Below are positions 7,901 to 59,289 of a stretch of DNA of 64,000 nt, piece after piece. The number at the start of each line of letters is the position of its first letter. The stretch's first letter is position 1. This stretch comes from Anadara kagoshimensis (taxonomy: Eukaryota > Mollusca > Bivalvia > Arcoida > Arcidae): assembly GCA_021292105.1 (NCBI GenBank), contig CM037862.1, positions 34,182,770 through 34,246,769 of the forward strand, given 5' to 3'. The notes beneath the pieces were generated by a model that was not told the DNA's origin, did no database searches, and was given only the letters and a program-made list of their open reading frames with translations. Position numbers and translations under genes: made by a program.

Positions 7901-10900
7901 ACATTACGATGGAAGTGCGGAGGTGACTACGTCATCGTCGTCTGATAAAGATGGAAGGCATTCGCAGTTCCAGGAGTTTGCTAAATATCGGCAGTATCAG
8001 AAGCAACAACAGTTATCAAAGACCGGGCACAGTAATTCCTCCATCGAAAGTTCAGCATCTGATAAAATTAACGTGATATTAAACGACAAAGGTATTTCTG
8101 CCTTATCTACTAGTAACTCACAAAATTTTCTTAATAGAACCAGTGCTAGTGACGTCCAGCATTATTACACCATGACATCTTTGTCAGTTCCTAGTATACA
8201 GGCATGTAATTAAAAGTCCATTTCCCACGTTTTAAAATAATGTTGCTAAGTTCCATAATAAAGAATTATCAAAAAGTTTGTCAAAAAAGTAATTTCCATA
8301 AACTAAATATGTTTATTTTTAAGTAGCTTTTCAGATTTTGTTCCAAGACAGCACAGCAACCCTTTTCCAACGTGGGTGTAATGGTTGTATCGTTGGATGA
8401 CCTTTTACTTTGGATTTACGACGCTGGGTTTTTAATTCATAACGTTGGTACGATGTCGATGTTGGACAAACGTAAATTCCAATGTAGGATATAATTTTCA
8501 ACATTAGTTTAACGTTGCACAATTGTCAAAAGCTGTTATTAACTGATACTGTATACTGCGTCGACAAATGAAATTTCAATTTTCTTTTTAAACTAAGTTT
8601 GCATGAATATTTATTTATATTTTGTATTTATACAATCATGTATTATTAAAGAAATACATGGAAATGCATTATCCTTGGAAATCAATTTAACCTTTTATAT
8701 AATACGCTTAGATGAATGGAGAGCCTGGAATGAGATGAGGGTTGAGATGAAAGTTGAGAAGAAAGCTGTTGTGGCAGAAATAGAACCCGAAAACCCCACA
8801 TCGTATTTCAATAATAAACCGGTGGCTCCACCTCTGATTTCAAGTGATATTGTTGAAAGCCCTTATGTTGCTGCCAAGGGTGTACCGCCACAACTTCCAT
8901 CAGTCGATGATAAAGTGAAAACGAAACCACCACCGGTCCCAATTGAAAGGTAACACGCATATATTTTATTGGTATTTCAAAGCATTGAGAGCGCAAATTC
9001 AAATGCAAATTCAGAATTTTCAGAACAGAAAACAATGAAAGTATTCTGAAACCGTTACTTATATAGAAATAAATTAATAACTTTTCGGTAATTGATAATA
9101 TGATATTCATAGAACACTACCTATTTTTCAAATGTTATAATTATATAAGCGAACAGTGGTATATAAGTTGACTATATTTTACTTAAGTTTAGTACGTTTA
9201 GCCAGGCCATTTTGCAATAATAGCAAGTTAGTCGGGTTTTTGTTTTTGAATTATGATAGACAGTTTTTAGAATACACAAATGTATTCATTTTGCAGATCT
9301 TCTAAAAACCTGAGGATTGAAAACGAAACTCCTAACAAAATTGAAGCCAAGTTATCAAATGAAAGTTCGAATAGAAAAGTGAAATTCTCAAGAAAACTCG
9401 ATGTTACCACTGCAAATGACCATGGTCTATTCACCAACAAAATAGATGTCAATAGTCAGAAATCGGCCGGAAACAGAAAACAAGCAGAGGCATTTGCAAG
9501 GAAACAAAGGCAATATGTCGGAGGTAATACTATAACGTGTGCGTGTGTCAATAGATGTGCAACATGCAATGCACCCGTAAATAAGCCAAACTGTATGCCT
9601 TAATTGTTTATATTGCAATTAAAAAGTAACTTACCATCTTTAATAGAAATGGTTTTAATTTGTCAAATCAGTAATTAACTTTAATATGCAATATTTCTGT
9701 AAATAGCTTGCATTTTTATGATGAAGTTTCGGCTTTGCTGTATTAAAACATTTTCTTCAGTGAAGCATTTTAGTACCTTCAAAAGTTGATTTTCATACCT
9801 AGTGATCCCTACATGTGTACTTGATGGTATTGTGCCTTTTGCACTCGCGAAAATACACATAAGCAGCAACTTTCTTTTTGATTTCACATGAAACTTTAAA
9901 AAAAAGAAAGAAAAAAAAACATAACAGCCTGCACCAAGAGATTGGAAAAACAGCATAATTCTGATAAAGTTTGCTAGTCAGTAAGACACTGACAGCCAGA
10001 TTTTATTCCAGTCAAATTAAAATTACATGTATTATTAATTCTGAATTTTATTTCAGAACTTGCATGGACAAGTCGTGATAAAACATACAGAAGTCACACT
10101 CCTAAATCACCTCAAAATGCATTTGAAAATAGCAATATACCGGAGAAGACATTTCACATAACCAATACTACAGAAAAGAAAATCAAACCAAAAGAAACAC
10201 TGTCACAAGAAGAGGGGGCAGAAACAAAGCATAGTTCCCCTAGTGTTCACTTTAAGGTATGTGCTAGTTCCTCACTTTTGGGTGTGTACTAGTTCATCGG
10301 TTCAGAGTATGTAACAGATCCTTGCTTCAGAATATTACAATGTACTAGTTCCTCAATTATGGGTATGTATTAGTTCCTCACTTCAAGGTATGTATTAGTT
10401 CCTTACTTTAGAGTATGTATTAGTTCCTCACTTCAGGGTATGTATTAGTTCCTTACTTTAGAGTATGTATTAGTTCCTCACTTCAAGGTATGTATTAGTT
10501 CCTCACTTCAAGGTATGTATTAGTTCCTTACTTTAAGAGTATGTATTAGTTCCTTACTTTAAGAGTATGTATTAGTTCCTCACTTCAAGGTATGTATTAG
10601 TTTCTCACTTCAAGGTATGTATTAGTTTCTCACTTCAAGGTATGTATTAGTTCCTCACTTCAAGGTATGTATTAGTTTCTCACTTCAAGGTATGTATTAG
10701 TTCCTTACTTCAAGGTATGTATTAGTTCCTCACTTCAAGGTATGTATTAGTTCCTCACTTCAAGGTATGTATTAGTTCCTCACTTCAAGGTATGTATTAG
10801 TTCCTTACTTCAAGGTATGTATTAGTTCCTTACTTCAAGGTATGTATTAGTTCCTCACTTCAAGGTATGTATTAGTTCCTCACTTCAAGGTATGTATTAG

Positions 10901-13900
10901 TTCCTTACTTTAAGAGTATGTATTAGTTCCTTACTTTAAGAGTATGTATTAGTTCCTCACTTCAAGGTATGTATTAGTTCCTCACTTCAAGGTATGTATT
11001 AGTTCCTCACTTCAAGGTATGTATTCCTCACTTCAAGGTATGTATTAGTTTCTCACTTCAAGGTATGTATTTGTTCCTCACTTCAAGGTATGTATTAGTT
11101 CCTTACTTCAAGGTATGTATTAGTTCCTCACTTCAAGGTATGTATTAGTTCCTCACTTCAAGGTATGTATTAGTTCCTCACTTCAAGGTATGTATTAGTT
11201 TCTCACTTCAAGGTATGTATTAGTTTCTCACTTCAAGGTATGTATTAGTTCCTCACTTCAAGGTATGTATTAGTTTCTCACTTCAAGGTATGTATTAGTT
11301 TCTTACTTCAAGGTATGTATTAGTTCCTCACTACAAGGTATGTATTAGTTCCTCACTTCAAGGTATGTATTAGTTCCTCACTTGAAGGTATGTATTAGTT
11401 CCTTACTTCAAGGTATGTATTAGTTCCTTACTTCAAGGTATGTATTAGTTCCTCACTTCAAGGTATGTATTAGTTCCTCACTTCAAGGTATGTATTAGTT
11501 TCCTCACTTCAAGGTATGTATTAGTTCCTTACTTTAAGAGTATATATTAGTTCCTTACTTTAAGAGTATGTATTAGTTCCTCACTTCAAGGTATGTATTA
11601 GTTCCTCACTTCAAGGTATGTATTAGTTCCTCACTTCAAGGTATGCATTAGTTTCTCATTTCAAGGTATGTATTTGTTCCTCACTTCAAGGTATGTATTA
11701 GTTCCTTACTTCAAGGTATGTATTAGTTCCTCACTTCAAGGTTTCTATTAGTTCCTTACTTTAGAGTATGTATTAGTTCCTCACTTCAAGGTATGTATTA
11801 GTTCCTTACTTTAAGAGTATGTATTAGTTCCTTACTTTAAGAGTATGTATTAGTTCCTCACTTCAAGGTATGTATTAGTTCCTTACTTCAAGGTATGTAT
11901 TAGTTCCTCACTTCAAGGTATGTATTAGTTCCTCACTTCAAGGTATGTATTAGTTCCTCACTTCAAGGTATGTATTAGTTTCTCACTTCAAGGTATGTAT
12001 TAGTTTCTCACTTCAAGGTATGTATTAGTTCCTCACTTCAAGGTATGTATTAGTTTCTCACTTCAAGGTATGTATTAGTTCCTTACTTCAAGGTATGTAT
12101 TAGTTCCTCACTTCAAGGTATGTATTAGTTCCTCACTTCAAGGTATGTATTAGTTCCTCACTTCAAGGTATGTATTAGTTCCTTACTTCAAGGTATGTAT
12201 TAGTTCCTTACTTCAAGGTATGTATTAGTTCCTCACTTCAAGGTATGTATTAGTTCCTCACTTCAAGGTTTGTATTAGTTCCTCACTTCAAGGTATGTAT
12301 TAGTTCCTTACTTCAAGGTATGTATTAGTTCCTTACTTCAAGGTATGTATTAGTTCCTCACTTCAAGGTATGTATTAGTTCCTCACTTCAAGGTATGTAT
12401 TAGTTCCTCACTTCAAGGTATGTATTAGTTCCTTACTTTAAGAGTATATATTAGTTCCTTACTTTAAGAGTATGTATTAGTTCCTCACTTCAAGGTATGT
12501 ATTAGTTCCTCACTTCAAGGTATGTATTAGTTCCTCACTTCAAGGTATGTATTAGTTTCTCATTTCAAGGTATGTATTTGTTCCTCACTTCAAGGTATGT
12601 ATTAGTTCCTTACTTCAAGGTATGTATTAGTTCCTCACTTCAAGGTTTGTATTAGTTCCTTACTTTAGAGTATGTATTAGTTCCTCACTTCAAGGTATGT
12701 ATTAGTTCCTTACTTTAAGAGTATGTATTAGTTCCTTACTTTAAGAGTATGTATTAGTTCCTCACTTCAAGGTATGTATTAGTTTCTCACTTCAAGGTAT
12801 GTATTAGTTCCTCACTTCAAGGTATGTATTAGTTTCTCACTTCAAGGTATGTATTAGTTCCTTACTTCAAGGTATGTATTAGTTCCTCACTTCAAAGTTT
12901 GTATTAGTTCCTTACTTTAGAGTATGTATTAGTTCCTCACTTCAAGGTATGTATTAGTTTCTCACTTCAAGGTATGTATTAGTTTCTCACTTCAAGATAT
13001 TCAAGGTATGTATTAGTTCCTTACTTCAAGGTATGTATTAGTTCCTCACTTCAAGGTATGTATTAGTTCCTCACTTCAAGGTATGTATTAGTTTCTCACT
13101 TCAAGGTATGTATTAGTTTCTCACTTCAAGGTATTCAAGGTATGTATTAGTTCCTTACTTCAAGGTATGTATTAGTTCCTCACTTCAAGGTTTGTATTAG
13201 TTCCTTACTTCAAGGTATGTATTAGTTCCTCACTTTAAGGTATGTATTAGTTCCTCACTTCAAGGTATGTATTAGTTTCTCACTTCAAGGTATGTATTAG
13301 TTCCTTACTTCAAGGTATGTATTAGTTCCTCACTTCAAGGTTTGTATTAGTTCCTTACTTCAAGGTATGTATTAGTTCCTTACTTCAAGGTATGTATTAG
13401 TTCCTCACTTCAAGGTTTGTATTAGTTCCTTACTTCAAGGTATGTTCCACACTTCAAGGTATGTATTAGTTCTTTGCTTTAGGGTATGTACTTGTTCTTT
13501 GCTTAAGGGTATATTCAACACTTCAAGGTATTTACTAGTTCTTTGCTTTAGGGTGTGACCTAGCTCCTCACTTCAGGTTATATACTAATTCTTTACTTTA
13601 GGGTATGAATTAGTTCCTCATTTCAAGGTATCCAATATTTCCTCACTTCAAAGTACCGGTATGTACCATTTCCTCATTATGTACTAATGCATCTTGCATG
13701 TCTATTGGTTACTTTTTTGCTTTATATTGTCAGATGGAGAGTGGAATTGAGCAGTGGTGTTTTACTCCCAGTATAGATTATTTCACTTATATTTAGGCAG
13801 TCAGTTCTGGGATGACGCAGATAAAAACCATTGATTTGATGGAAAGAGCTGTATTCTGCAAGAGGAAACTTAAACCACTTGACCATCAAGGCCCCCATGT

Positions 13901-14674
13901 AAAATAATATAGAATATAGTGATGTGTATCTTCAATATGCTGTTTACAATAGCCATTGTAACAAAGAATACAAAATCAACACAACGCACTGAGATCATTG
14001 ATAATAAACTGTTCTTATTGAATGGACACTGAATACAATAAAAGGGTATCCAATTGTGTGGACCAAACCATTTCACTCCATTGAAAATTATTGGGTCCCT
14101 TAGGCCTTAACACACACTTGAATTCAAAAATTCAAATAAGAAAATGTTATAAATGGTGAACCATCTTACACTTCTGTCCATCTGTCCAAATATCCTGTCC
14201 ACTTCGTTTAAGATACTTTACAAGTGTTTAACTAATTGATCTTCAAGCTTCTAGAAAACATCTTTTTTCCATTGTATTAGTGTCAAAATTGATGCTCATG
14301 TAATTTTGCTAAAAACTGAGGAAGTGCTTTTGGTACTGAACCATATGATAAATATTCAATATATTTTTCAGAATCTGCCAAAGAATGATAATAAGAAACC
14401 AAAACAGAAAAAGTCATCAGGGCTTGATAGAAGAAAATGTATCAACATGAAAAAAGATTCCCTGCCAACATTTAAACCTCCAAAACCAGCACAACAACAA
14501 AGACCTCAAAGTCATCAAGAAACAAAGAAAGAAATCAACAGGACATTATCCTCTCTGGCATTCTCTCCAGCATTTACGTTTTCTTTCTTTGAACTTCCAA
14601 ATGGATATAAGAACAGTAATCATGATCTTTCTCGTCGAGCATCTACTGCATTTAGTAAAATAAACCTTAGATAA
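314..14674 (+). CDS. Uncharacterised long disordered protein, 3' 11 exons (5' partial)
   Basis: I do not recognise this protein. Eleven exons follow GT-AG borders with fully compatible phases: 314-436, 1071-1226, 2140-2409, 2929-3361, 4003-4636, 6726-6796, 7627-8091, 8712-8949, 9297-9523, 10057-10256, 14372-14674. They total 3,120 nt, or 1,039 codons plus TAA. The first exon opens at an acceptor with no initiator, so the start lies upstream of the window. No catalytic domain is visible. Exon 3 is Ser/Pro-rich with repeated SSP/SP motifs. Exon 4 has a CDKC cysteine pair, then a Gln/Lys-rich, possibly helical stretch. Exon 5 is Lys/Glu-rich. Exon 7 has a basic patch (NRKRRKAKR) and acidic Ser clusters, and exon 8 a proline run (PPPVP). 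The composition suggests a scaffold or regulatory protein, but that is inference. The frame stays open over all exons with no frameshift, which argues for a live gene. Exon 7 could instead read on to a stop at 8213. Confidence 0.8.
1234..1312. repeat. (ATG)n trinucleotide microsatellite
   Basis: About 25 nearly uninterrupted ATG/GAT triplets sit immediately after the splice donor that closes exon 2 of the partial gene (exon end 1226). The minus-strand poly-His reading frame across it is a by-product. Confidence 0.95.
1773..1839. repeat. Short inverted repeat (hairpin)
   Basis: About 24-bp arms (GTGTCATATACCATTTTTTT and its reverse complement) flank an AT-rich loop of roughly 17 nt in an intron. 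It is a small foldback/MITE-like structure with no coding content. Confidence 0.75.
4891..4932. repeat. (CT)n dinucleotide microsatellite
   Basis: About 21 perfect CT units in the intron between exons 5 and 6 of the partial gene. Confidence 0.97.
5280..5700 (+). repeat. Dispersed repeat with fortuitous 133-codon ORF
   Basis: Part of this segment (about 5385-5490, around TCTCCGAT and CTCTCTCAATTCTT) resembles 42415-42510, so it is interspersed and not gene-specific. An open frame runs 5296-5697, but it lacks splice support and matches no known domain. The segment lies within the intron 4637-6725. The central part resembles the body of the local tRNA-headed SINE (GTGAGAAAGTTTGTCA). Confidence 0.5.
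6240..6535. repeat. Degenerate AT-rich tandem repeat with short palindromes
   Basis: Roughly 55-65-bp units built on GAATTAAGTATTTCGTAT recur about four to five times. Several contain the self-complementary core TTCGTATATACGAA. The segment lies in an intron just upstream of exon 6 (6726-6796). Confidence 0.65.
10257..13470 (+). repeat. 25-bp minisatellite seeded on a splice donor (about 125-130 copies)
   Basis: The unit is GTATGTATTAGTTC followed by CTCACTTCAAG, 25 bp long, with a 26-bp variant carrying TTTAAGA. The array starts directly at the donor of exon 10, whose junction TTCACTTTAAG|GTATGTGCTAG is itself a variant unit. Nearly every copy therefore carries AAG|GTATGT, a good 5' splice site. 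Degenerate copies continue to about 13660. Blocks recur at about 0.9-kb spacing (for example around 11650 and 12553), showing higher-order duplication. Reading past exon 10 into the array meets a TAG within about 40 nt. Confidence 0.97.
13735..13899 (-). mobile_element. tRNA-headed SINE, partial copy
   Basis: The reverse complement shows the tRNA-like A-box region (GATGGTCAAGTGG) and the family 3' body ending near TATAAGTGAAA. It shares this body with the copies at 14903, 20408, 23535, 45748, 51446, 54776 and 56815. The middle is deleted. It lies in the last intron of the partial gene. Confidence 0.7.
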
Positions 14675-14799
14675 TTTATATTTTATTAATTTGTATTAAT
14701 TGTATCAAATACTTTGTATACTAATTAAGAATTTTAATTTTTAAATTGATCATTTACAAAGAAGACAAATCTCTAACTGTAATAGAAATATTTTTAAAA

Positions 14800-16176: not shown

Positions 16177-19100
16177 TTATGTATAGCACTTCAGTAAGTA
16201 AAGTCTTGCAAACATTTTTGGCATCAGATGTGGACGGCTATCCTGCAACAAAACAAAATAATATTTGTAAAATCTTCAGCTCTGTTATGGATATCTGTAT
16301 AATGTACAAACAAGAGGCCCATGGGCCTTAACGCTCACTGAGGCAGAGTACATATCTTACGCAGAGGTTCAATGGTCAATGACATTAATAAAAGAGTATA
16401 TCAAAATTTTCAGAAGAAGGGCCAATAATATGCAAGTATTTTGGGCAAATTAATTATAATAATTATTATATAAGTATGCTATATAAACATGTCTAAAGTC
16501 TAGCTACAATAAATAATTATAAAAAGCTAAAACATCTGTATATTAAAATGCGCATTAGGCCAATACCTAACCATAAGATAATTAAAACCATTTAAGATTT
16601 GTTAAATTCTATGACCTTGACCTTTGAACCTATGACCTTCATTCATATATCAAAATGATGTTAGGCCAATACCTATATATTCCAATATACATGCCTATAC
16701 AAAAAGTTTATAGTTTTTGAGATAATTAACCATTTAAGTATTTGTTCACCTCTATGACCTTGACCTTTGAACCTATGACCTTCATTCATAATCAAAATGG
16801 TTGTTGTCTAAAGGCCTACAATATTCCAATATACATGCCTATACAAAAAGTTTATAGTTTTTGAGATTAACCATTTAATAATTTAAGTATTCATTAAATT
16901 CTATGACCTTGACCTTTGAACCTATGACCTTTTTCATATATCAAAATGATCGTTAGCCAATACCTACAATATTCAATATACTGCCTATACAAAAAGTTTA
17001 TAGTTTTTTGAGATAATTAACCATTTAAATATTCGTTCGCAGCTATGACCTTGACCTTTGAACCTATGACCTTCATTCATGTATCAAAATGATCGTTAGA
17101 CCAATACTTACAATATTCCAATATACACGCCTATACAAAAAGTTTATAGTTTTGAGATAATTAACCATTTAAATATTCGTTTGCAGCTATGACCTTGACC
17201 TTCCTTGAACCTATGACCTTCATTCATATATCAAAATGATCGTTAGTTAGACCAATACTTTCAATATTCCAATATACATGCCTATACAAAAAAGTTTATA
17301 GTTTTTGAGATAATTAACCATTTAAGTATTCGTTTGCATCTATGACCTTGACCTTTGAACCTATGACCTTCATTCATATATCAAAATGATCGTTAGGCCA
17401 ATACCTAAAATATTCCAATATACATGACTATACAAAAAGTTTATACTTTTTGAGATAATTAACCATTTAAATATTTGTTTGCAGCTATGACCTTGACCTT
17501 TGAACCTATGACCTTCATTCATATTCATATATCAAATGATCGTTAGAGCACTACTTACAATATTCCAATATACATGCCTATACAAAAAGTTTATAGTTTT
17601 TGAGATAATTAACCATTTAAGTATTCGTTTGCATCTATGACCTTGACCTTTGAACCTATGACCTTCATTCATATATCAAAATGATCGTTATGCCAATACC
17701 TAAAATATTCCAATATACATGCCTATACAAAAAGTTTAAGTTTTTGAGATAATTAACCATTTAAGTATTTGTTTACGTCTATGACCTTGACCTTTGAACC
17801 TATGACCTTCATTCATATATCAAAATGATCGTTGTGCAAATGCCTACAATATTCCAATATACATGCCTATACAAAAAGTGTATAGTTTTTGTTATAATTA
17901 ACCATTTTAATATTCATTCACACCTATGACCTTGACCTTTGAACCTATGACCTTCATTCATATATCAAAATGATTGTTGTGCAAATGCCTACAATATTCC
18001 AATATACATGCCTATACAAAAAGTTTATAGTTTTTGAGATAATTAACCATTTATGTATTTGTTAAATTCTATGACCTTGACCTTTGAATCTATGATCTTC
18101 ATTCATATATCAAAATGATTGTTAGACCAATACTTACAATATTCCAATATACATGCCTATACAAAAAGTTTATAGTTTTTGAGATAATTAACCATTTAAG
18201 TATTCATTTGCATCTATGACCTTGACCTTTGAACCTATGACCTTCATTCATATATCAAAATGATCGTTAGGCCAATACCTAAAATATTCCAATATACATG
18301 CCTATACAAAAAGTTTATAGTTTTTGAAATAATTAACCATTTAAGTATTTGTTCACCTCTATGACCTTGACCTTTGAACCTATGACCTTCATTCATATAT
18401 CAAAATGATCGTTAGGCCAATACCTACAATATTCCAATATACATGCCTATACAAAAAGTTGATAGTTTTTGAGATAATTAACCATTTAAGTATTTAAGTA
18501 TCGTTTGCATCTATGACCTTGACCTTTGAACCTATGACCTTCATTCGTATATCAAAATGATTGTTAGGCCATAACCTACAATATTCCAATATACATGCCT
18601 ATACAAAAAGTTTACAATTTTTGAGATAATTAACCATTTAAGTATTTGTTTGCGTCTATGACCTTGACCTTTGAACCTATGACCTTCATTCATATATCAA
18701 AATGACCGTTGTGCAAATGACTACAATATTCTAATATACATGCCTATACAAAAAAGTGTATAGTTTTTGAAATAATTAACCATTTAAATAGTCATTCGCA
18801 GCTATGACCTTGACCTTTGAACCTATGACCTTCATTCATATATCAAAATGATCGTTAGGCCAATACCTACAATATTCCAATATACATGCCTATACAAAAA
18901 GTTGATAGTTTTCAAGATATATTGACAAATACATTAATTTTAGAGATTTTCCCCTTAAGTGCCTTGCCATTTCCCCATTTTGGCCTCAATAGCTACGATT
19001 TGTGCAAATCTGAAACTAGGTGCCCTAAGTATGTTTCACATGAAATATCTAAGCTATATCTCTTGTAAGTTCTGAGAAGATGATTTTTAAAGATTTTCAC

Positions 19101-33124: not shown

Positions 33125-36100
33125 TTCGTAGTTTTAACGTACCAGAACGTAATAAAAGATATAAAGCAGGTGATTCCGCAGGACTACGTGTACAGTACTG
33201 TACCAATACATGTAATAGAAACAATTAATGTTTGTACACCCACACACAGTGGTTTTTTTAAATGTAATGCGGATGTAGAAAAATTCCGACATGAAAATTG
33301 AAGCACTTCCAGTAAATGCCAGTTCATTGCTACCACTTGCTCTGTCAGATTTTGACGACAAATTGGATGCGACTTCAAAATATTGTGGCGATAGGCAATG
33401 TGGCAAAGATACCAGCGAGGGACATATAATAACGATGTTTTACTGTATAAGTACAGGTTATATAACAATAAACCATCACGTCATTGAAATTTTCATAAAC
33501 ATCTATTTAAAAACAAAACAAAAATACGCGTTAAATTAGTGGAAAGGGTATTACACGCAGTTATCATAAAATCAAATTCTTCCTAACTTTCAGCATAATG
33601 TTTGTAAATATATTTACATGGAATGTTAGAGGCATAGGCGTAGGAGCAGGGGGGGGCCAGCGGGGGCCGGGCCCCCCCAATGTCAGAGAAGGGGGGGCCA
33701 GGCCCCCGCAATATATTGTGTGAAATTTTGTATCATGCTAAAAAATAGAAAAAAAAACCAAAAAACCAAGAGCTTTAACAGGAAATGTCCATCTGGTAAC
33801 CAATCAATTATCAATTTCATCATTATACTTGTAAAAAAGCGTCAAAATTTCCCGGGGTATCCCCATATCCAGTGGCGGATTCAGCGGGGGGCGTACCCCT
33901 CCCCCTTTTATCGCATATAATACATATTGTTCAGCTCAGATTGCACCAGAATGCAGGATTTTGCGCCATTTTTTCAAAATTTTCCGGGGGAGCATGCCCC
34001 CGAACCCCCTAGAAGGTTCGAGCCTTCGACTTTTACATTATACGCCCCTTTCTAAAATTCTGGATCATCACCAATGAGAGAGATTGATTATGGAACTTGT
34101 GTCATACGGTTATTTCTTATAATCTTGCCTTGATATCACAGTATTTTTACCTATCAAAACGATGCACAATACATTGAAAATGCGTCTAAAGAAGACTTAG
34201 TTTTGAAAATTTTCCGGGGGAGGCCCCCCGGACCCCCACCTATGCGTGGGGTTTAGCACCCCTCTCATACTCTCCCCGCCTCGTGCCATAGGCACGAGGT
34301 CGTACCTGCGGCACGACATAGACATAGCTTCGGTTTGGCCCCCCCCCAATATTAAAAACCTTCCTACGCCTATGAGAGGTGTCATGTCTTCTGCAGTATG
34401 CTTGTCAGAATTATTAGATTTGACTAACTGTGATATTGCAGTAATAAGTGAACACAAACTTAAACAAAGTACTCTACATTTTTTGAACTCTATAGACAGT
34501 AACTATTCCAGTGTTGGTAAAGCTAGTTGTAATTTAGATGAGAGAACTAGATGTGGTAAAGCAGGTATAGCTGTATTATATAAGAACTCCATATCCCCAT
34601 ATATAACACACATAGATGATACAATGTCAGAACGCATTGTAGGTATTGAGTACAAAGACCATATCAATACTCCCCTATATATATTCGGTGTATATCTCCC
34701 CGCTGATGGTTATATAGAACACTATAAGAATGAGTTATTACAGTCAGTATGGGCATGTAATAATTGCCGGGGACTTCAACGCCAGTTGCAGGTCCGTAGA
34801 TATGTCTAGTTGTAATTATTACAAGTCTATGGAGTTTAACAAATTTGTAAATAGTTGTTGTTTAACCCCTGTAAATATTGGTAACCATTGTAAAGGTAGT
34901 AGTTATAGTTATGTTACATGAAATTCTATGTTAGACTATATTCTTGCTGATGAAATATTGTGTAACAGCTTTAGTGCTTGTGAAATCCTTGCTGAGGGCA
35001 GTATAGGGAACACGTCCGATCACTTACTTATTGTAGCATCGCTAAAATACAGTGTAAAAATTCAAAAACTGAACACGTCTAACGAATGGCCAAAATGGCA
35101 TAAAGCAGATAGAGTTATACTCGAAACTTATGCTAAAGAAATGGAGGATGCATTCCACGAATTAGAAACTCCAAAGATTACCGATATTGACAATATTAAT
35201 CAATTTTACAATTCTCTAGTAAATGTTTTATTAACGGTATCTGATAGGGTAATTCCAAAATCAAAATACAAGGCCCATACGAAACCATACTGGAATAATT
35301 CGGTGAAAGAAGCGCATAAAAAGGAAAGAGAATTGCGACGTGAATGGATACTGGAAGGGCGACCACGTGGATCAGAATACAATAGTTATAATGCGTATAA
35401 GCAAGCAAAAGATGAATTCCGCAGAATACAAAAGTCATCGTGTGAAAAGTTTCTAAACGATGTTTACAGTGATATAGACCGAGCTGCGGAGTGTGATATA
35501 AGACTGTTCTGGCAACTCATTAAACGCCAAAAACCAAAACAGAAGAGTAACTTTTCAGCTATCGTAGTTGATGATAAAGTGCATTCAACACCCGAGGATA
35601 TAGCAGAGGCATTTGGTGAATACTATCGAAATATATACACACCAAAACATAACCCGGAGTTTGATAGTGACTTCCACGACAATATCTGTAATGATGTTGA
35701 CGCCATCTTCTCACAATGTACAAATGACCAGTGTCCTATACCAGGAGGCGATTTTACAACAGCGGAGATATCAAACTGTATTAAACAGCTTAAACTACGG
35801 AAAGCCCCTGGTTGCGATAATGTACAGAATGAACATCTCATCTATGGCGGTGAACAATTGTGTAACAATATAACGTTGTTGTTTAATGGCATAGTTAAAG
35901 TTGGTAGAATTCCAGAAACTTGGAAACAGGGATTGGTCATACCGATACACAAAGGCAATGGAAAAGATAAATCTAATCCGGACAATTACAGACCAATCTC
36001 TTTATTGGTAACCATCTTTAAACTCTTTGAAAGAGTATTGTATGATAGACTCATTAACAATTCAGTCATAAAACAGCCCTTCCCAAACTGTCAACAGCAG

Positions 36101-38010
36101 GGATTTCAGAAGCACTTAAGCTGTGTAACTGCCTCTTTTAATTTGAATGAAACGATACACCATGCTATTGAAAGAGGTAGCAGAGTATTTACTGCTTTCT
36201 TAGATAGTCAGAAAGCCTTTGACACGGTATGGCGCAAAGGCATGCTATATAAGCTATACCATTTAGGTGTAATAGGTAAGATGTGGTCTATTATCTATGA
36301 TTGTCACCACAATACATCTGGCTCTGTTGTTATAAACTCCACACGTTCAACATGGTTTGCTGTTGACCAAGGTATTAGACAAGGGGGTGTTTTGTCTACA
36401 TTTTTATACTCTGTCTTTATTAATGAACTGTTATGTATATTAGAGTCAAATCCCCACGCAGCATGTGTAAATGTCATACAGGCAGGTAACCCTACGCTAG
36501 CAGACGATCTAGTCTGTATCAGTATGACGCCGCTTGGTCTCCAGTCTATGCTAGATATGGCTTACAAGTATTCTTGCTTTTGGAGATTTAAATTTAACGC
36601 TAAAAAATCGCAGATAATGGTATTCAGCAAAAGCAAAGCAAACTCTGACGATAACTTTATGTTTTATTTGGGACCTAACAGTGTTGAGTTAGCTACCGAG
36701 TGCACACACCTTGGAATTCTACTTAACTCGCAACTTAAAAGTATTAACCGTACTACTGAGATGTGTCGCAAAGGATGAAATGCTTACTTTGCTATCAATG
36801 GAATAGGCTCGTCAGAATTAAATCCTATTACAACAGTTGGACTATATAGAAAAATTGTTATTCCTACTACTCTGTATGGGTGTGAAGTGTGGACTAACCT
36901 CAAAACTTCTGATATTGACACATTAAATAAGTTTCAGCATTTTGTAGTTAAACACATACAGAAGCTACCACAGTATACTAGATCTGATATGGCAGAAAGT
37001 TTGTGCAATCTATTTCCAATTACTGCTGAGATTTCCAAACGAAAATTACTGTTCTTTGGGAAGTTGTGTAATATGGACTGTTCATTACTACCAAAGAAGA
37101 TATTTATAACCAGACTTTACGAATTTGTAATTGGTTCAACACCCACTCACCTAGGATTTATCCCCGATATATGTGAATTATTAAATAAATACAGCCTAGT
37201 TTCACACTTGTATAAATATATTACATCAGGAAGCTTCCCTTCACATACACATTGGAAAAAGCTGGTAAACTCTTCAATCAGAGATCACGAATTGTCGCTC
37301 CGATTAAACAGAATGGATAACGACCCGGACTTCATCCGATTTAAATACCTACACAACGGTGCTCACTATGGACGTTTATGGTCATTGGCAGCTAATAGTT
37401 TCCAATTATCATTAGCAAACTACATTATGGCATTATGGACACTACCTCCTCTAACTACCAGGAAAATATGTTTGCTGTGTAACACCGAGTTCAGGGACTG
37501 TCTGACACATATTGTTCTATTTTGTTCTACACCCGAACTAGTATCCATACGGCATATGTTCTGGACTTCAATCAATTATGTTAATGCCAATAATGGTGAT
37601 CTTTACGATATACTCATGTCTTACGAACCGGAAATTCTTATACAGGTTCTGCTTGGCAGTGGTTTACATGTTAAAGTAACAAATGAACTTACTTTTGGGT
37701 TCTTGCGCTACGTAAGACTATGTTACCAGATCCATCGGTCTCGCTTTATCCTAGCATAGACCGGAGACCATGGCACATGTAAAACTATAATTAGTTACTA
37801 TGTAAAATATGTATATATGTTATGTACGTTAATATTGCTTTGCTTAGTTTTATTATGTAATACATGTATATGTTTTGAATTATCATAGAATCACTATTGT
37901 AGTGGAATTAAATAAATGATGATGATGATGTGTCAGATTATTATTTATTATTATTATTATTCATGTTTTCTTTTTAAGGTAAGAAATCAAAGAAGAAGAA
38001 GATAAATTGA
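29470..38010 (+). CDS. Predicted small Lys-rich protein (78 aa, four exons)
   Basis: I do not recognise this protein. Exons 29470-29503, 32028-32113, 32616-32700 and 37979-38010 have good GT-AG borders and compatible phases, ending in TGA. The second exon encodes an aromatic/proline motif (FPGWGWTHPRFPLDG) and then ITRIYNTE. The third is acidic then basic (GYEEEESND, KKKHNS). The last gives a Lys tail (KKSKKKKIN). The start is the least secure part: MNTKTASALRK comes from a 34-nt exon chosen for its ATG, donor (AAGG|GTAATG) and phase. Further exons could lie in the 2.5-kb first intron. The GW/HPRFP block looks conserved and structural, and the Lys tail recalls nucleic-acid-binding or axonemal small proteins, but no function is assigned. 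A LINE fills the last intron. Confidence 0.55.
29833..30318. mobile_element. Foldback element, about 480 bp
   Basis: Imperfect inverted arms of about 210 nt pair across this segment. Left-arm landmarks (TATCCATAGAAAAT, GATATTTTTCACTTACTTGT, CATGCGCATCCGCGATT, GCGTTATGGGGA) all recur as reverse complements on the right. It lies in the first intron of the proposed small gene. Confidence 0.8.
31032..31191. repeat. (AAC)n and (GTT)n facing microsatellites
   Basis: An AAC run (about 31032-31051) and a GTT run (about 31169-31190) face each other across 115 bp and could pair. The open frames that cross both runs on each strand have no other support. Confidence 0.7.
31360..31885. repeat. 58-bp tandem repeat, about 9 units
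   Basis: The unit reads GCAAGAGAATAGCGCATATC then ACAGCAAGTCACTGATATTG and a CTCTAAATTGATAAG segment, 58 bp in all. Early units near 31360-31430 are degenerate, later ones nearly identical. The array lies in the first intron of the small gene, ending about 140 bp before its second exon. Confidence 0.9.
32478..32585. repeat. (TTTA)n microsatellite
   Basis: About 25 TTTA units with one interruption (ACATG) end about 30 bp upstream of the acceptor of exon 3 of the small gene (32616). They form part of its pyrimidine-rich approach. Confidence 0.95.
33089..33124. repeat. (TTA)n microsatellite at the LINE 5' side
   Basis: About 12 TTA units precede the LINE. A similar (TTA)n run lies beyond its 3' end (37938-37962), suggesting insertion into a TTA-rich site. 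Confidence 0.9.
33598..37759 (+). pseudogene. LINE ORF2 (endonuclease-reverse transcriptase), broken
   Basis: The endonuclease begins MFVNIFTWNVRG at 33598, is split by a nested element (33633-34374), and resumes at 34380 with ISEHK, AGDFNAS, LDYIL and TSDHLLIV. RT motifs follow: NYRPISLL, AFLDSQKAFDTVW (motif A), IRQGGVLS (motif B), LADDL (motif C, with Leu where the usual residue is Tyr/Phe) and NAKKSQIMVFSK. The C-terminus holds CLLC...HIVLFC, a CCHC-like motif. Damage: a frameshift near 34740-34770 and in-frame TGA codons at about 34919 and 36776. The rest is open, so decay is recent to moderate. The parent protein would be about 1,130 aa. Confidence 0.92.
33633..34374. mobile_element. 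742-bp TIR element nested in the LINE
   Basis: Terminal inverted repeats CATAGGCGTAGGA / TCCTACGCCTATG bound the segment, followed inward by G or C runs. Both sides carry a 5-bp target duplication, AGAGG (33628-33632 and 34375-34379). Removing the element and one copy restores the LINE reading frame. It has no ORF. Inside is a further repeat edge (CAGTGGCGGATTCAG at about 33872), possibly a third level of nesting. The superfamily is uncertain. Confidence 0.9.
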
Positions 38011-46770: not shown

Positions 46771-49700
46771 AGATAAAGTTACTTGGCATGGGCGGAAACT
46801 ACAGATCCTAATGACATCAAACTAGAGCATGTAAGAACAGCTTATAGACTGAATGTGAAGCCTTGTAAAGCAGGCTCTTGTAAGAGGAACTGTAAAACTA
46901 ATCCATATTGTTTGAATGGTATCGGAGAACGTTCTTGGTTTACTGAACGTAACGATGACAGCTGGCATGATTTGAAGATCCAAATGAGCAGAGAAGGCCT
47001 GATAACGCATATGCAGGACTTAAAAATCTAGGGGCAACCTGTTATGTTAATACATTTCTTCAGTTGTGGTTTCATAATCCTATTATAAGAACTGCAATTT
47101 ACAAATTCAGAGAGCAAGATCCACCTTTAACGGAAAAGGAAATAGAAGTTTGGTTACCGTCAAGTATTGGAGGTCATCTACAAGCGTTGTTTGCTTTGTT
47201 AGAATTTACCAAAAGAGCCTCTGTTGATCCTGATAGCTTTATTACTCATCTTGGTCTGGACGCTGGTCAACAGCAAGATGCACAAGAATTTTCCAAATTA
47301 TTTCTGTGTCTTCTAGAAGATGCCTTGTCTCAACAAGATGTTAGTGTTAGGAATGTCATTCAGCAACAGTTTAGAGGTGATTATGCGTACGTCACAACTT
47401 GTAGTAAATGTGGAAATTCATCTGAGAGATTATCCGAGTTTTATGAATTAGATTTAAACATTCGGGGCCACAAGACTTTGGAAGAGTCCATTTTGGATTT
47501 TTTAGGGGAGGAGAAGTTAGATGGGGATAATCAGTACATGTGTTCACATTGTTCCAGTAAGCAAAATGCAAAAAGAGCAATTCAGTTGAAAAATCTCCCT
47601 CCAGTGCTAAATTTACAACTTCTACGTTTTGTGTTTGACAAAAAATCTGGTCACAAAAAGAAACTGAACAGTTTCATTCAATTTCCGGAAGTATTGGACA
47701 TGAATAAAGTTTTAGAAAAGAGTAAAAGTAAAACAGGGAACCAGAAATCGGACAACAAGGAGGGCACCATTTCAAATGACCAAGTTCCAAGTTCTACTGC
47801 AGAACAGTCGTCCAGTCTAAATCAAAACTGCAATATGATTTATGACCTTAAAGCCGTACTAATCCACAGAGGTCCAACAGCATATAGCGGACACTATACA
47901 GCCCACATTAAGAAAAATAATGTATGGTACAAGTTCAATGATGAGGAAGTGGAACGGATGAAGGGATCAAATTTACATCTTGGCATGGAAGATGACCTTC
48001 AGGAGGGATCAACAAAACAGAAAGGTTCATGTCCTAAGGGATACTACTCTACCAGAAATGCTTACATGTTAGTTTATGAGGTAAGAGCCAATGGGTGTAA
48101 TGAACCAAATGGGAAACAGAAAGAGATATCGGTTAATGCAAATGAATTGTTGCCATATCACGTCCTGGAATATGTCAACAGAGATAACGAGAGTTTTGAA
48201 CAGTGGGTAGCCGAGACCATGGTTCTCCGAGATCAAACCATCGAAAACGGGAAAGAAAAACAAGAGGTTGTGAAAAATACCTATGATAAATTGTCATTTT
48301 CTGGAATGGAGAATCCAGAATCGGAGCAACAGGAATTTGAATGGATAAGTATAGCTTGGCTCGGAAAATGGCTGAGCGAGCCTTCAAAAGCACCAGCAAT
48401 AGATAATCAGACTTTCCTCTGTAAACATGACAAATTATCTCCTGATGTCTTGACAAAAATGAAATGTATTAGTATACGAGGGGCAGACACTTTGTTTGAA
48501 AAGTACCAAGGTGGTCCCAGATTGAAAGGTGAAGATGTGTTATGCTACACATGTGTGAAACAGAAGTGTAACATTATAAGGACTAAACAGAAAATAGCAG
48601 ACGATGAAAAGTTGTTTAGCAATACAAAGAAATTGTCAAATTTGCAGGATGGAGATGCATTTTGGGTAGGAAAATCATCAATGCGAAGTTGGAGAAGATT
48701 GGTCCTCGAACAACTTAGTGAAAATGGAGATGATTCCAATATGGACAAATCTGTAACAGCGAATGATACTTCAGCAGCGAATGATGGCTCCCCAAGAAAT
48801 GAAAATGCTGTTGCAAATGACGATTCTTCAGCAGATCAAAATGTCAGCAAAAGTTGTGATGATGTCAGTAAATTAGCGATAAAAGAGGAAAAGGCTGAGA
48901 AAAAATCTACAGATGAGGATGATGATGAAAATAGTAACCTCTTGTTTAATGAAGATGTCTTGTGTGAAAAGCATGGAAATCTGGATCCAGATGAGAGTTG
49001 TAGAAAACTTGTGCCAGGTGTAATATGGCAAAGGTTACGAGATTATTTCCCAGAATGCCCAGAGTTTCCTCGTGATTCACCTGTTTGTGATTTGTGTTGT
49101 GTTCTTAATCATGAAGAAAACCAAGCTCTGGATTATAACAAGCAAGTAGCAGCAGAACAGAGGTCTGGTCTGAATGACTTGTTAAATGACAGGAAACGGC
49201 CGTCAAATTTACGAAATCCTTCAGAAGTCTTTGTTGTAAACTCGTCATTTGTTGAAGAATGGAGAAAATTTGTAAGAGATCCTCAAAAGAAATGTCCAGT
49301 AACAGAGATACTGAATGGTACACTTCTTTGCCAGCATGGAGGCTACCTGTATCCCCCTAAGCAAAATGGTCTTGACCCCACAACACATGAAAATGTTGTC
49401 TACTTGTGGCCAGAAGAATGGACAAAAATTTGTCAGTATTTCAGCATAGACTTTGAAATTTCTGTAGTTAAGTATGAAGAAGGAGGACAGACATGGTTTG
49501 TTACCTCCCTGCTAGTTGTGAGGAATGCGTTACGAATCGTTTAACCCAGCGACATAAAGAACGATTTCAGTTTACTGATGCTGTCATGTACATAAGAAAG
49601 ATGTCCAAGGACAAGAATGGGAAAATGAATAATTTATCAGATGAGAAAAACAAAGAAGACCCAGATTACAATCTGCCGGACAACAGCACTAATAGGGACA

Positions 49701-57065: not shown

Positions 57066-57749
57066 CGGAATGTCGTTCTACATCTAGTCTATTCCCTACA
57101 GGGCCATTGTTCAGTAATAATTATGATGATTTTATTACTTTGAAGATGAATTACTCTCGAAACTTTAAAGTCACTTGACAGGTCGCTGAAGTACTTTATC
57201 TGTAACTTGATTTTACTTTCAAATTAAACTCCTGAAGTCATAAACACCTTCAAAATATACAGAGTTAACCAAACAAATATTATGTTACATATACTAACGT
57301 TACTCTGTGAAGGTAATATTATTTTGTCTTATATCAATATTTACCTCGATGACATTAAAATTTAGAGTACATGAATTCATTGATCAAATTTATATACTAT
57401 ACCTCAGTGAATTTGTAGTTGTATTTATTATAAAGAAGAGTGCGATCTTGGAGGGGAAACGCGTAACTTGCTTCATGTCTTTCACTTAAATCGAAACAGT
57501 AAGATTTTGGTTGTCGGAGAAAACGACAAAATCCAGAAAACTGTCACATATACCCACATGAAAATGGAACCCAGTGGCGACAAGAGTAGCTGCAAGTGTT
57601 TGTATAATGTCTCTAGAAATAAATATTGATAACTTCAAAACCAACATGTCTTTCACACATTTTGTTGTTTGGATGAACAGTAATGCTATTTTACGCTCAA
57701 GTCAAAGTTTTTCACTTGTACATAGAGGTGGTGAGATTAGAAATGGTAG
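57066..57749. other. Intergenic, nothing recognised
   Basis: AT-rich sequence with frequent stops. The small open frames lack motifs or splice context. Confidence 0.5.
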
Positions 57750-58318
57750 AGAAAACCAGAGGAACTTCGATCGGAGCACACTGAGCTGTGAGGAAACCAG
57801 AGGAACTTCGATCGGAGCACACTGAGCTGTGAGGAAACCAGAGGAACTTCGATCGGAGCACACTGAGCTGTGAGGAAACCAGAGGAACTTCGATCGGAGC
57901 ACACTGAGCTGTGAGGAAACCAGAGGAACTACGGTCGGAGCACACTGAGCTGTGAGGAAACCAGAGGAACTTCGATCGGAGCACACTGAGCTGTGAGGAA
58001 ACCAGAGGAACTTCGATCGGAGCACACTGAGCTGTGAGGAAACCAGAGGAACTTCGATCGGAGCACACTGAGCTGTGAGGAAACCAGAGGAACTTCGATC
58101 GGAGCACACTGAGCTGTGAGGAAACCAGAGGAACTACGGTCGGAGCACACTGAGCTGTGAGGAAACCAGAGGAACTTCGATCGGAGCACACTGAGCTGTG
58201 AGGAAACCAGAGGAACTTCGATCGGAGCACACTGAGCTGTGAGGAAACCAGAGGAACTACGGTCGGAGCACACTGAGCTGTGAGGAAACCAGAGGAACTA
58301 CGGTCGGAGCACACTGAG
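57750..58318. repeat. 41-bp minisatellite, about 14 units
   Basis: The unit is GAGGAAACCAGAGGAACTTC then GATCGGAGCACACTGAGCTGT, 41 bp. Two forms alternate, ACTTCGATCGG and ACTACGGTCGG. The minus strand has no stop in any frame of the unit, so three overlapping long frames of 114-200 codons arise by composition. No gene is inferred. Confidence 0.95.
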
Positions 58319-59289
58319 ATGTTTTAAATAGAAATCGACATGAGGAACATATCCAATAAAACTGGCGATAGTGATGCATGTATAGATCTGGTTGACATTT
58401 TAGATGTGGTTTCGTGATGCTCTGGTTAAACAATTGTAAAGTACAACTCGATAGTCAAGACATTTCAACTGAGACATGTGTCGTTGCTCAACGACATTCA
58501 ATATTCTATATTTCATTTTATATCACTTGCATCTGAATCGACTTCAGCTGTCATCTACCAAGACAGTGGAAGTTAATCAAAATTCAGAAAAACCATCAGA
58601 AACTCGTAATTTAAAATGGCAGACGACAGACACGTCTCCAATTTTAGATCAAATAATCCGGTATTTTCTCGACTAACAAGCTTTTTTAACGAACCCCTGG
58701 ATTATTTGTTATTTCCGGTGTAGCAGCCGACAGTAATAAAGTATTACACAATAGTTTCTGTTTCAGTAATTTGTCAAGTTTTTTTCCACAATGACACGGT
58801 AGTCTGCTTCAGTAAAATATACTTGTCGATCATTTCACAAAAATATTTCCATGACGCTGTTCAGATCTACTTTAAATCACATCACTGCATCAATACAGTG
58901 TCACTTCAGAAGTCGGGCGATTTTGATGTTTTCGCTATAACTTCCATTTTGAATAGATCTGAATGTGTATCCCTATGGCGATTGTGAATCTGATGAAATT
59001 TTCATTTTTAAAATACATGTAGATTTAATTCTCACAAATTTGCTATCTAGTTTCCTTTGTTATATAAATTCACTTAGAAAACGTCAACAACTCGAATACG
59101 GTTGTTGTACAGCGGTTCTGTAGATAACGGCAACTGAGTATTTTTAAATCTTATCAATCCCAGGTTTTATTGGAGATGGTCATTTAGTTATACACTACAA
59201 AGACTTTAACGTAACAGTTCTGTATAAATGTAAATTGTAACAAGTACTAGTAACGTAATTCCTTGTACATGCTTACAACGAGTGCATTA
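58319..59289. other. Intergenic, nothing recognised
   Basis: Unique-looking AT-rich sequence. No exon, RNA gene or repeat family could be supported. Confidence 0.5.

What the first reader, a model, noticed from the sequence alone, without database searches (positions are those of the whole stretch)
10240..13470. Minisatellite grown from a splice junction: about 125 tandem copies of a usable 5' splice site
The last 11 nt of exon 10 plus the first part of the intron (TTCACTTTAAG|GTATGTGCTAGTTC) match the 25-bp repeat unit. The array therefore seems to have begun by duplication across the exon-intron border. Nearly all copies keep AAG|GTATGT, a good U1 target, beside the true donor. Using any downstream copy would add an in-frame TAG, so either the first donor is strongly preferred or splicing here is noisy. 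The array could also sequester U1 and influence elongation or length of this 4.1-kb intron.
Basis: partly seen in the sequence, partly recalled or inferred. Interest (0 to 1): 0.78.

Follow-up and report, generated by a model that had tools for sequence, protein, structure and literature searches.

The report
Splice-donor minisatellite beside an exon
In a gene of an animal-like genome, a 25-letter repeat carrying a good splice-start signal runs for about 138 copies straight from the end of an exon, an unusually large example of a known kind of oddity that could show how cells choose among identical splice sites.

Summary
The array is real: 138 units of about 25 bp in one register from 10257 to about 13720; 97 of 138 keep the exact donor 9-mer AAG|GTATGT. 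10257 is very probably a true donor, since exons 8-11 join in one open frame across it; no RNA was available. The last 10 exonic bases match the unit in register, better than at 419 control AG|GT sites, but a gapped extension is not significant (9 of 419 as good). Exon end and array are probably homologous; which gave rise to which is open, as no orthologue could be reached.

Two claims fail: "nearly all copies" is 70%, and copy 2 would frameshift rather than add an in-frame TAG. Donors 2-5 are weak; the next exact copy is 131 nt downstream. The far end has decayed too, so ordinary edge decay suffices, and the motif shows no clear selective protection.

Best reading: a neutrally amplified donor-edge minisatellite whose first copy is the working donor. 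Related precedents exist (human IFI6/6-16, UBC, fission-yeast repeats).

The parts
   Evidence: CAG| acceptor before 10057, AAG|GTATGT at its end; frame continues from exon 9 and into exon 11
10246..10256 (+). exon tail that matches the repeat unit in register (10 of 11)
10257..10262 (+). inferred true 5' splice site GTATGT
   Evidence: open frame SVHFK|NLPKND across the junction
10257..10362 (+). left edge of array, 4 decayed units; donors of copies 2 to 5 are weak
   Evidence: identity 18-20 of 25; donor scores 5.1, 4.4, -13.9 (partly an alignment effect), 5.9 against 9.9
10363..13438 (+). homogeneous core of array, 122 units, 24 unit types, 95 with AAG|GTATGT; contains internal block duplications
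13439..13720 (+). right edge of array, about 12 decayed rows
14372..14674 (+). exon 11, last coding exon, ends in TAA
   Evidence: CAG| acceptor and frame
14003..14042 (+). two intronic AATAAA motifs (14003, 14037) downstream of the array

Best explanation
A donor-edge minisatellite. A 25-bp stretch including a 5' splice site became tandemly repeated, and later block duplications (the clear ones 13 to 23 units long) homogenised the middle and left both ends to decay. The first unit serves as the real donor of exon 10; the rest is removed with the 4.1-kb intron. I infer that the first copy wins because it is the one paired with the exon-10 acceptor 200 nt upstream (exon definition), because its nearest rivals are weak, and because distant choices would mostly be destroyed: copies from 10363 on place the TAG at 10290 at least 70 nt before the last junction, a nonsense-mediated-decay geometry. 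Copies 2-4 would give a protein with 11-13 new residues in place of its last 100. Shown: array, open frame, in-register match, block duplication, edge decay. Inferred: donor use, exon definition, decay of misspliced transcripts, and the absence of a selected function.
For: 138 units in one register starting at 10257. Of copies 1-8 tried as donor, only copy 1 keeps the frame to the TAA. 10-base exon match against a maximum of 8 at 419 control sites, and 0 of 419 with 7 of 8. Four block duplications (scores 32.5, 25.7, 18.4, 18.2) exceed the highest value of 200 order shuffles, 16.9. 15 edge rows are 16-23 of 25 identical, core 96.3%. Distinct substitutions: 6 in 9 donor positions, 8 in 16 others, so no depletion. 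Donors of copies 2-5 are weaker; the next exact 9-mer is at 10388.
Against: The gapped extension of the exon match is not significant (9 of 419 AG|GT controls as good or better; 7 of 167 AAG|GT). The true donor has the same 9-mer and score as 96 other copies, so the site itself does not explain the choice. Its predicted RNA accessibility is lower than that of 94 of 96 exact copies. GT itself is kept in 122 of 122 core units, which leaves room for some constraint, though 7 of the 16 positions outside the donor are invariant too. No transcript, orthologue or second allele was examined.
Confidence: 0.66

Rival explanations
1. Donor capture: the minisatellite existed in the intron first, reached or replaced the old donor, and exon 10 now ends inside it, so its last residues (such as VHFK) are array-derived.
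For: The same in-register match. Unit 1 is itself a 20/25 array unit carrying the CTAG letter that 7 of 11 edge units have and 0 of 122 core units have.
Against: The match ends after 10-11 bases, as expected if only a short exonic stretch was duplicated; but decay would look the same.
Confidence: 0.3
2. The array acts as a U1 platform: many U1 snRNPs bind it and protect the transcript from premature polyadenylation at the intronic AATAAA motifs, or detain the last intron.
For: 97 exact AAG|GTATGT sites in about 3.5 kb, against 8 sites of equal or better score in the rest of the + strand of the window. AATAAA at 14003 and 14037 in the same intron. U1 telescripting is a described process (search listing with starts of abstracts).
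Against: No clear protection of the donor motif among unit types. U1 binding and use of the AATAAA sites are untested; AATAAA is common in AT-rich DNA.
Confidence: 0.08
3. Dual-specific splice-site array: each AG|GT serves as both 3' and 5' site, so the intron is removed in steps or with variable retained units, as in UBC.
For: 106 of 138 units have AG|GT, always AAG|GT. The 15-base stretch before it is 74% pyrimidine on average in core units, against 60-67% at the four acceptors of exons 8-11. UBC precedent (PMC10809524, abstract and passages).
Against: 0 of 138 units have CAG or TAG directly before the GT, the usual acceptor letters; 11 have it one base earlier. Retained units would bring stops.
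Confidence: 0.06
4. Chance: the exon tail resembles the unit only because donors share AAG and the region is T-rich.
For: Only 10-11 bases match; strict-consensus match is 6 of 8; the gapped test is weak (9 of 419 controls as good).
Against: 0 of 419 AG|GT sites and 209 of 120,842 positions do as well over the 8 bases outside AAG.
Confidence: 0.1

Closest known systems
Human IFI6 (6-16, G1P3) minisatellite providing multiple splice donor sites (Turri, Cuin and Porter 1995)
   Same: A minisatellite at an exon border whose units are splice donors. A citing paper states that two downstream repeat units are used as donors, giving three mRNA species (PMC4526556 passage).
   Different: Here the units are 25 bp, there are about 138, the extra donors would truncate the protein, and use of downstream copies is unknown. 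The 1995 paper was seen only as a title in reference lists; it is not held. That its repeat is 12 bp in about 26 copies is recalled.
Dual-specific splice-site array of human UBC (PMC10809524; abstract and passages seen)
   Same: Tandem AG|GT sites at the repeat units.
   Different: UBC repeats are coding and use as both kinds of site is reported there; here the repeats are intronic with AAG|GT and no 3' use is shown.
Tandem-duplication intron gain (Rogers model; fission-yeast 24-bp AGGT repeats as cited in PMC4974935; passages seen)
   Same: Short tandem duplication carrying AGGT, associated with an intron.
   Different: There the intron spans duplicates of an exonic segment; here the intron has its own acceptor at 14372 outside the array. 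Whether the intron is older than the array is unknown.
Ordinary intronic minisatellites with homogenised core and decayed edges (recalled as a general pattern)
   Same: Block duplication, edge decay, few unit types.
   Different: Its unit carries a donor and its edge is the donor.

Membership tests
Splice-donor minisatellite (IFI6 kind) | Tandem array whose units match the 5' splice-site consensus | tested here: met
   97 of 138 units AAG|GTATGT
Splice-donor minisatellite (IFI6 kind) | Array overlaps or abuts a real donor | tested here: met
   Frame-supported junction at 10256/10257, unit 1 starts at 10257; by sequence only
Splice-donor minisatellite (IFI6 kind) | More than one unit used as donor in transcripts | not testable with these tools
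   No RNA data
Dual-specific splice-site array (UBC kind) | Repeated AG|GT | tested here: met
   AG|GT in 106 of 138 units
Dual-specific splice-site array (UBC kind) | Usual acceptor letters YAG before GT | tested here: not met
   0 of 138 units have CAG or TAG directly before GT
Dual-specific splice-site array (UBC kind) | Units used as 3' splice sites | not testable with these tools
   No RNA data
Tandem-duplication intron gain | Intron bounded by duplicates at both ends | tested here: not met
   Acceptor at 14372 lies about 650 bp beyond the end of the array

The most novel reading that the evidence does not exclude
The array is a working element: about a hundred identical donor sites load many U1 snRNPs in the last intron, and copy number tunes intron removal, polyadenylation choice or the fraction of unproductive transcripts of this gene.
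Probability: 0.08. Interest if true: 0.7.

Novelty: new member of a known kind. Interest (0 to 1): 0.4.

Why it matters
Choice among identical neighbouring donors is, as far as I recall, mostly studied with built constructs of a few copies. Here nature offers 97 copies of the same 9-mer after one exon, with weak copies next to the real site. RNA from this animal would show directly how strongly position and exon definition override site strength, and whether minisatellite copy number can tune splicing.

Tried and rejected
Tried without result: the whole-genome search for other copies of the unit did not complete. Exact scans of viral contigs and genome contigs for one unit pattern each gave 0 stretches, which is no surprise for collections of viruses, bacteria and archaea. 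Pfam gave no family for the five exon or ORF pieces given, PDB sequences none for exons 8-11, Rfam none in the window at gathering scores. By their descriptions the collections that I could search do not cover animal genomes, so the decisive orthologue comparison could not be made.

Considered and rejected or left weak: RNA accessibility as the reason for choosing the first donor (the true donor is predicted less accessible than 94 of 96 exact copies); selection keeping the donor motif (6 distinct substitutions in 9 donor positions, 8 in 16 others, although GT itself is unvaried in 122 of 122 core units); an exon match reaching beyond 10-11 bases (9 of 419 controls as good); other copies of the unit in the window (the best single 25-mer elsewhere has 7 mismatches).

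Row 4 of the cyclic alignment is split by an insertion, so its donor score of -13.9 is partly an alignment effect. Control AG|GT sites left out before counting: those from about 10200 to 13750 or 10150 to 13800, and those within 30 or 60 bases of the start of a strand. Literature was searched with eight answered queries in an open-licence library only; I do not claim that this locus is absent from print.

Full report
What was checked. The window looks like animal nuclear DNA (an inference from its intron-bearing genes, a USP48-like open frame and a reverse transcriptase); the species was not identified. The sequence from 8500 to 14700 was read. Tandem Repeats Finder reports one main array, 10340-13655, period 25, 132.0 copies. 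A cyclic alignment to GTATGTATTAGTTCCTCACTTCAAG, written so that each unit begins at a putative intron start, gives 138 unit rows from 10257 to about 13720 in one register.

The splice junction. ORFs and splice-site letters give exon 8 8712-8949, exon 9 9297-9523, exon 10 10057-10256 and exon 11 from 14372. Joined, these read through one frame to a TAA. Exon 10 ends and exon 11 begins in phase 0. Among the first eight possible donors only the first keeps the frame to the end. The intron is 4115 nt. This is good sequence evidence but not RNA evidence. There is no Pfam family in the five exon or ORF pieces given and no PDB relative for exons 8-11.

The motif. Exact AAG|GTATGT stands at 97 of 138 units, 95 of 122 in the core; GTATGT at 112 of 122 core units. 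With a human-like donor matrix recalled from memory, the true donor scores 9.9, the same as 96 others; 41 score lower and none higher. Copies 2-5 score 5.1, 4.4, -13.9 (partly an alignment effect) and 5.9. The next exact 9-mer lies at 10388, 131 nt on. The rest of the window's + strand has 8 GT sites scoring as high.

Consequences of using other copies. Copy 2 adds 25 nt and shifts the frame into a TGA in exon 11. Copies 3-8 end at the TAG at 10290-10292, and later copies must do the same. From copy 5 (10363) on, that stop lies 70 nt or more before the last junction, where nonsense-mediated decay would be expected from general knowledge.

Match of exon end and array. The last 10 exonic bases match the unit without interruption when common unit variants are allowed, and 10 of the last 11 match. 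The AAG part is expected of any donor, so positions -11 to -4 were tested alone: 7 of 8 match (6 of 8 to the strict consensus). None of 419 AG|GT sites outside the array, on both strands, reaches 7 (three reach 6), and 209 of 120,842 positions of any kind do. Against this, a gapped extension further into the exon is not unusual: 9 of 419 AG|GT controls and 7 of 167 AAG|GT controls score as well or better. I conclude probable homology of about 11 exonic bases and no evidence beyond that.

History of the array. The 122 core units fall into 24 types and average 96.3% identity to the consensus, while 15 edge rows match at 16-23 of 25 positions. At the eighth base of the unit, 7 of 11 edge units tested carry C (TACTAG) and 0 of 122 core units do, so the core looks like one younger amplification. 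Blocks of types recur: 19 units at 11388-11867 and 12293-12771, and 13 units at 10565-10889 and 11943-12267. Their scores of 32.5 and 25.7, and those of two further blocks (18.4 and 18.2), exceed the highest of 200 order shuffles, 16.9. The donor positions as a set are not protected: 6 distinct substitutions in 9 donor positions, 8 in the other 16. GT itself does not vary in 122 of 122 core units, but several positions outside the donor do not vary either. The weak copies beside the donor could be read as selection against competing sites, but the far edge has decayed equally, so edge decay is enough.

Mechanism. The true donor differs from 96 copies neither in 9-mer nor, favourably, in predicted accessibility (lower than 94 of 96). 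Position must therefore decide: pairing with the exon-10 acceptor, earliest transcription, and the weak neighbours. This is inference. A U1-platform role (two intronic AATAAA motifs follow the array) and use as dual-specific sites (AG|GT in 106 of 138 units; CAG or TAG directly before GT in none) stay open at low probability.

Known relatives. The same kind of structure was described for human IFI6/6-16. I saw the 1995 title in the reference lists of PMC4526556 and PMC2572611 and one sentence on its result in PMC4526556; the paper itself is not held. Tandem dual-specific sites in UBC (PMC10809524, abstract and passages) and AGGT-bearing tandem duplication as a source of introns, including 24-bp repeats in fission yeasts (PMC4974935, passages), are further neighbours. 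The present case is longer than the IFI6 array as I recall it, and lies within an intron except for its first exonic bases, but is not a new kind.

Verdict. A real, large donor-edge minisatellite with a frame-supported donor as its first unit. The origin direction is unresolved and a function is not shown. It is a useful natural test case rather than a new system.

Noticed in passing
4637: Another probable donor in what may be the same gene also reads TCAAG|GTATGT, the same 11 letters as the array unit.
   Followed up: partly
46971-49544: USP48-like open frame: UCH, UCH_1 and DUSP domains above the Pfam cut-off, Usp-48 domain below its cut-off.
   Followed up: partly
34922-36778: Open frame with a reverse transcriptase domain (RVT_1), LINE-like by inference; neighbouring long frames at 34207-34809 and 36779-37759 were not scanned.
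   Followed up: partly
16576-18919: Second large tandem array, 145-bp unit, 16 copies, containing TGACCTTGACCTTTGA.
   Followed up: no
57749-58322: 41-bp array, 14 copies, 97% matches; one - strand frame over it is open for 203 codons.
   Followed up: no
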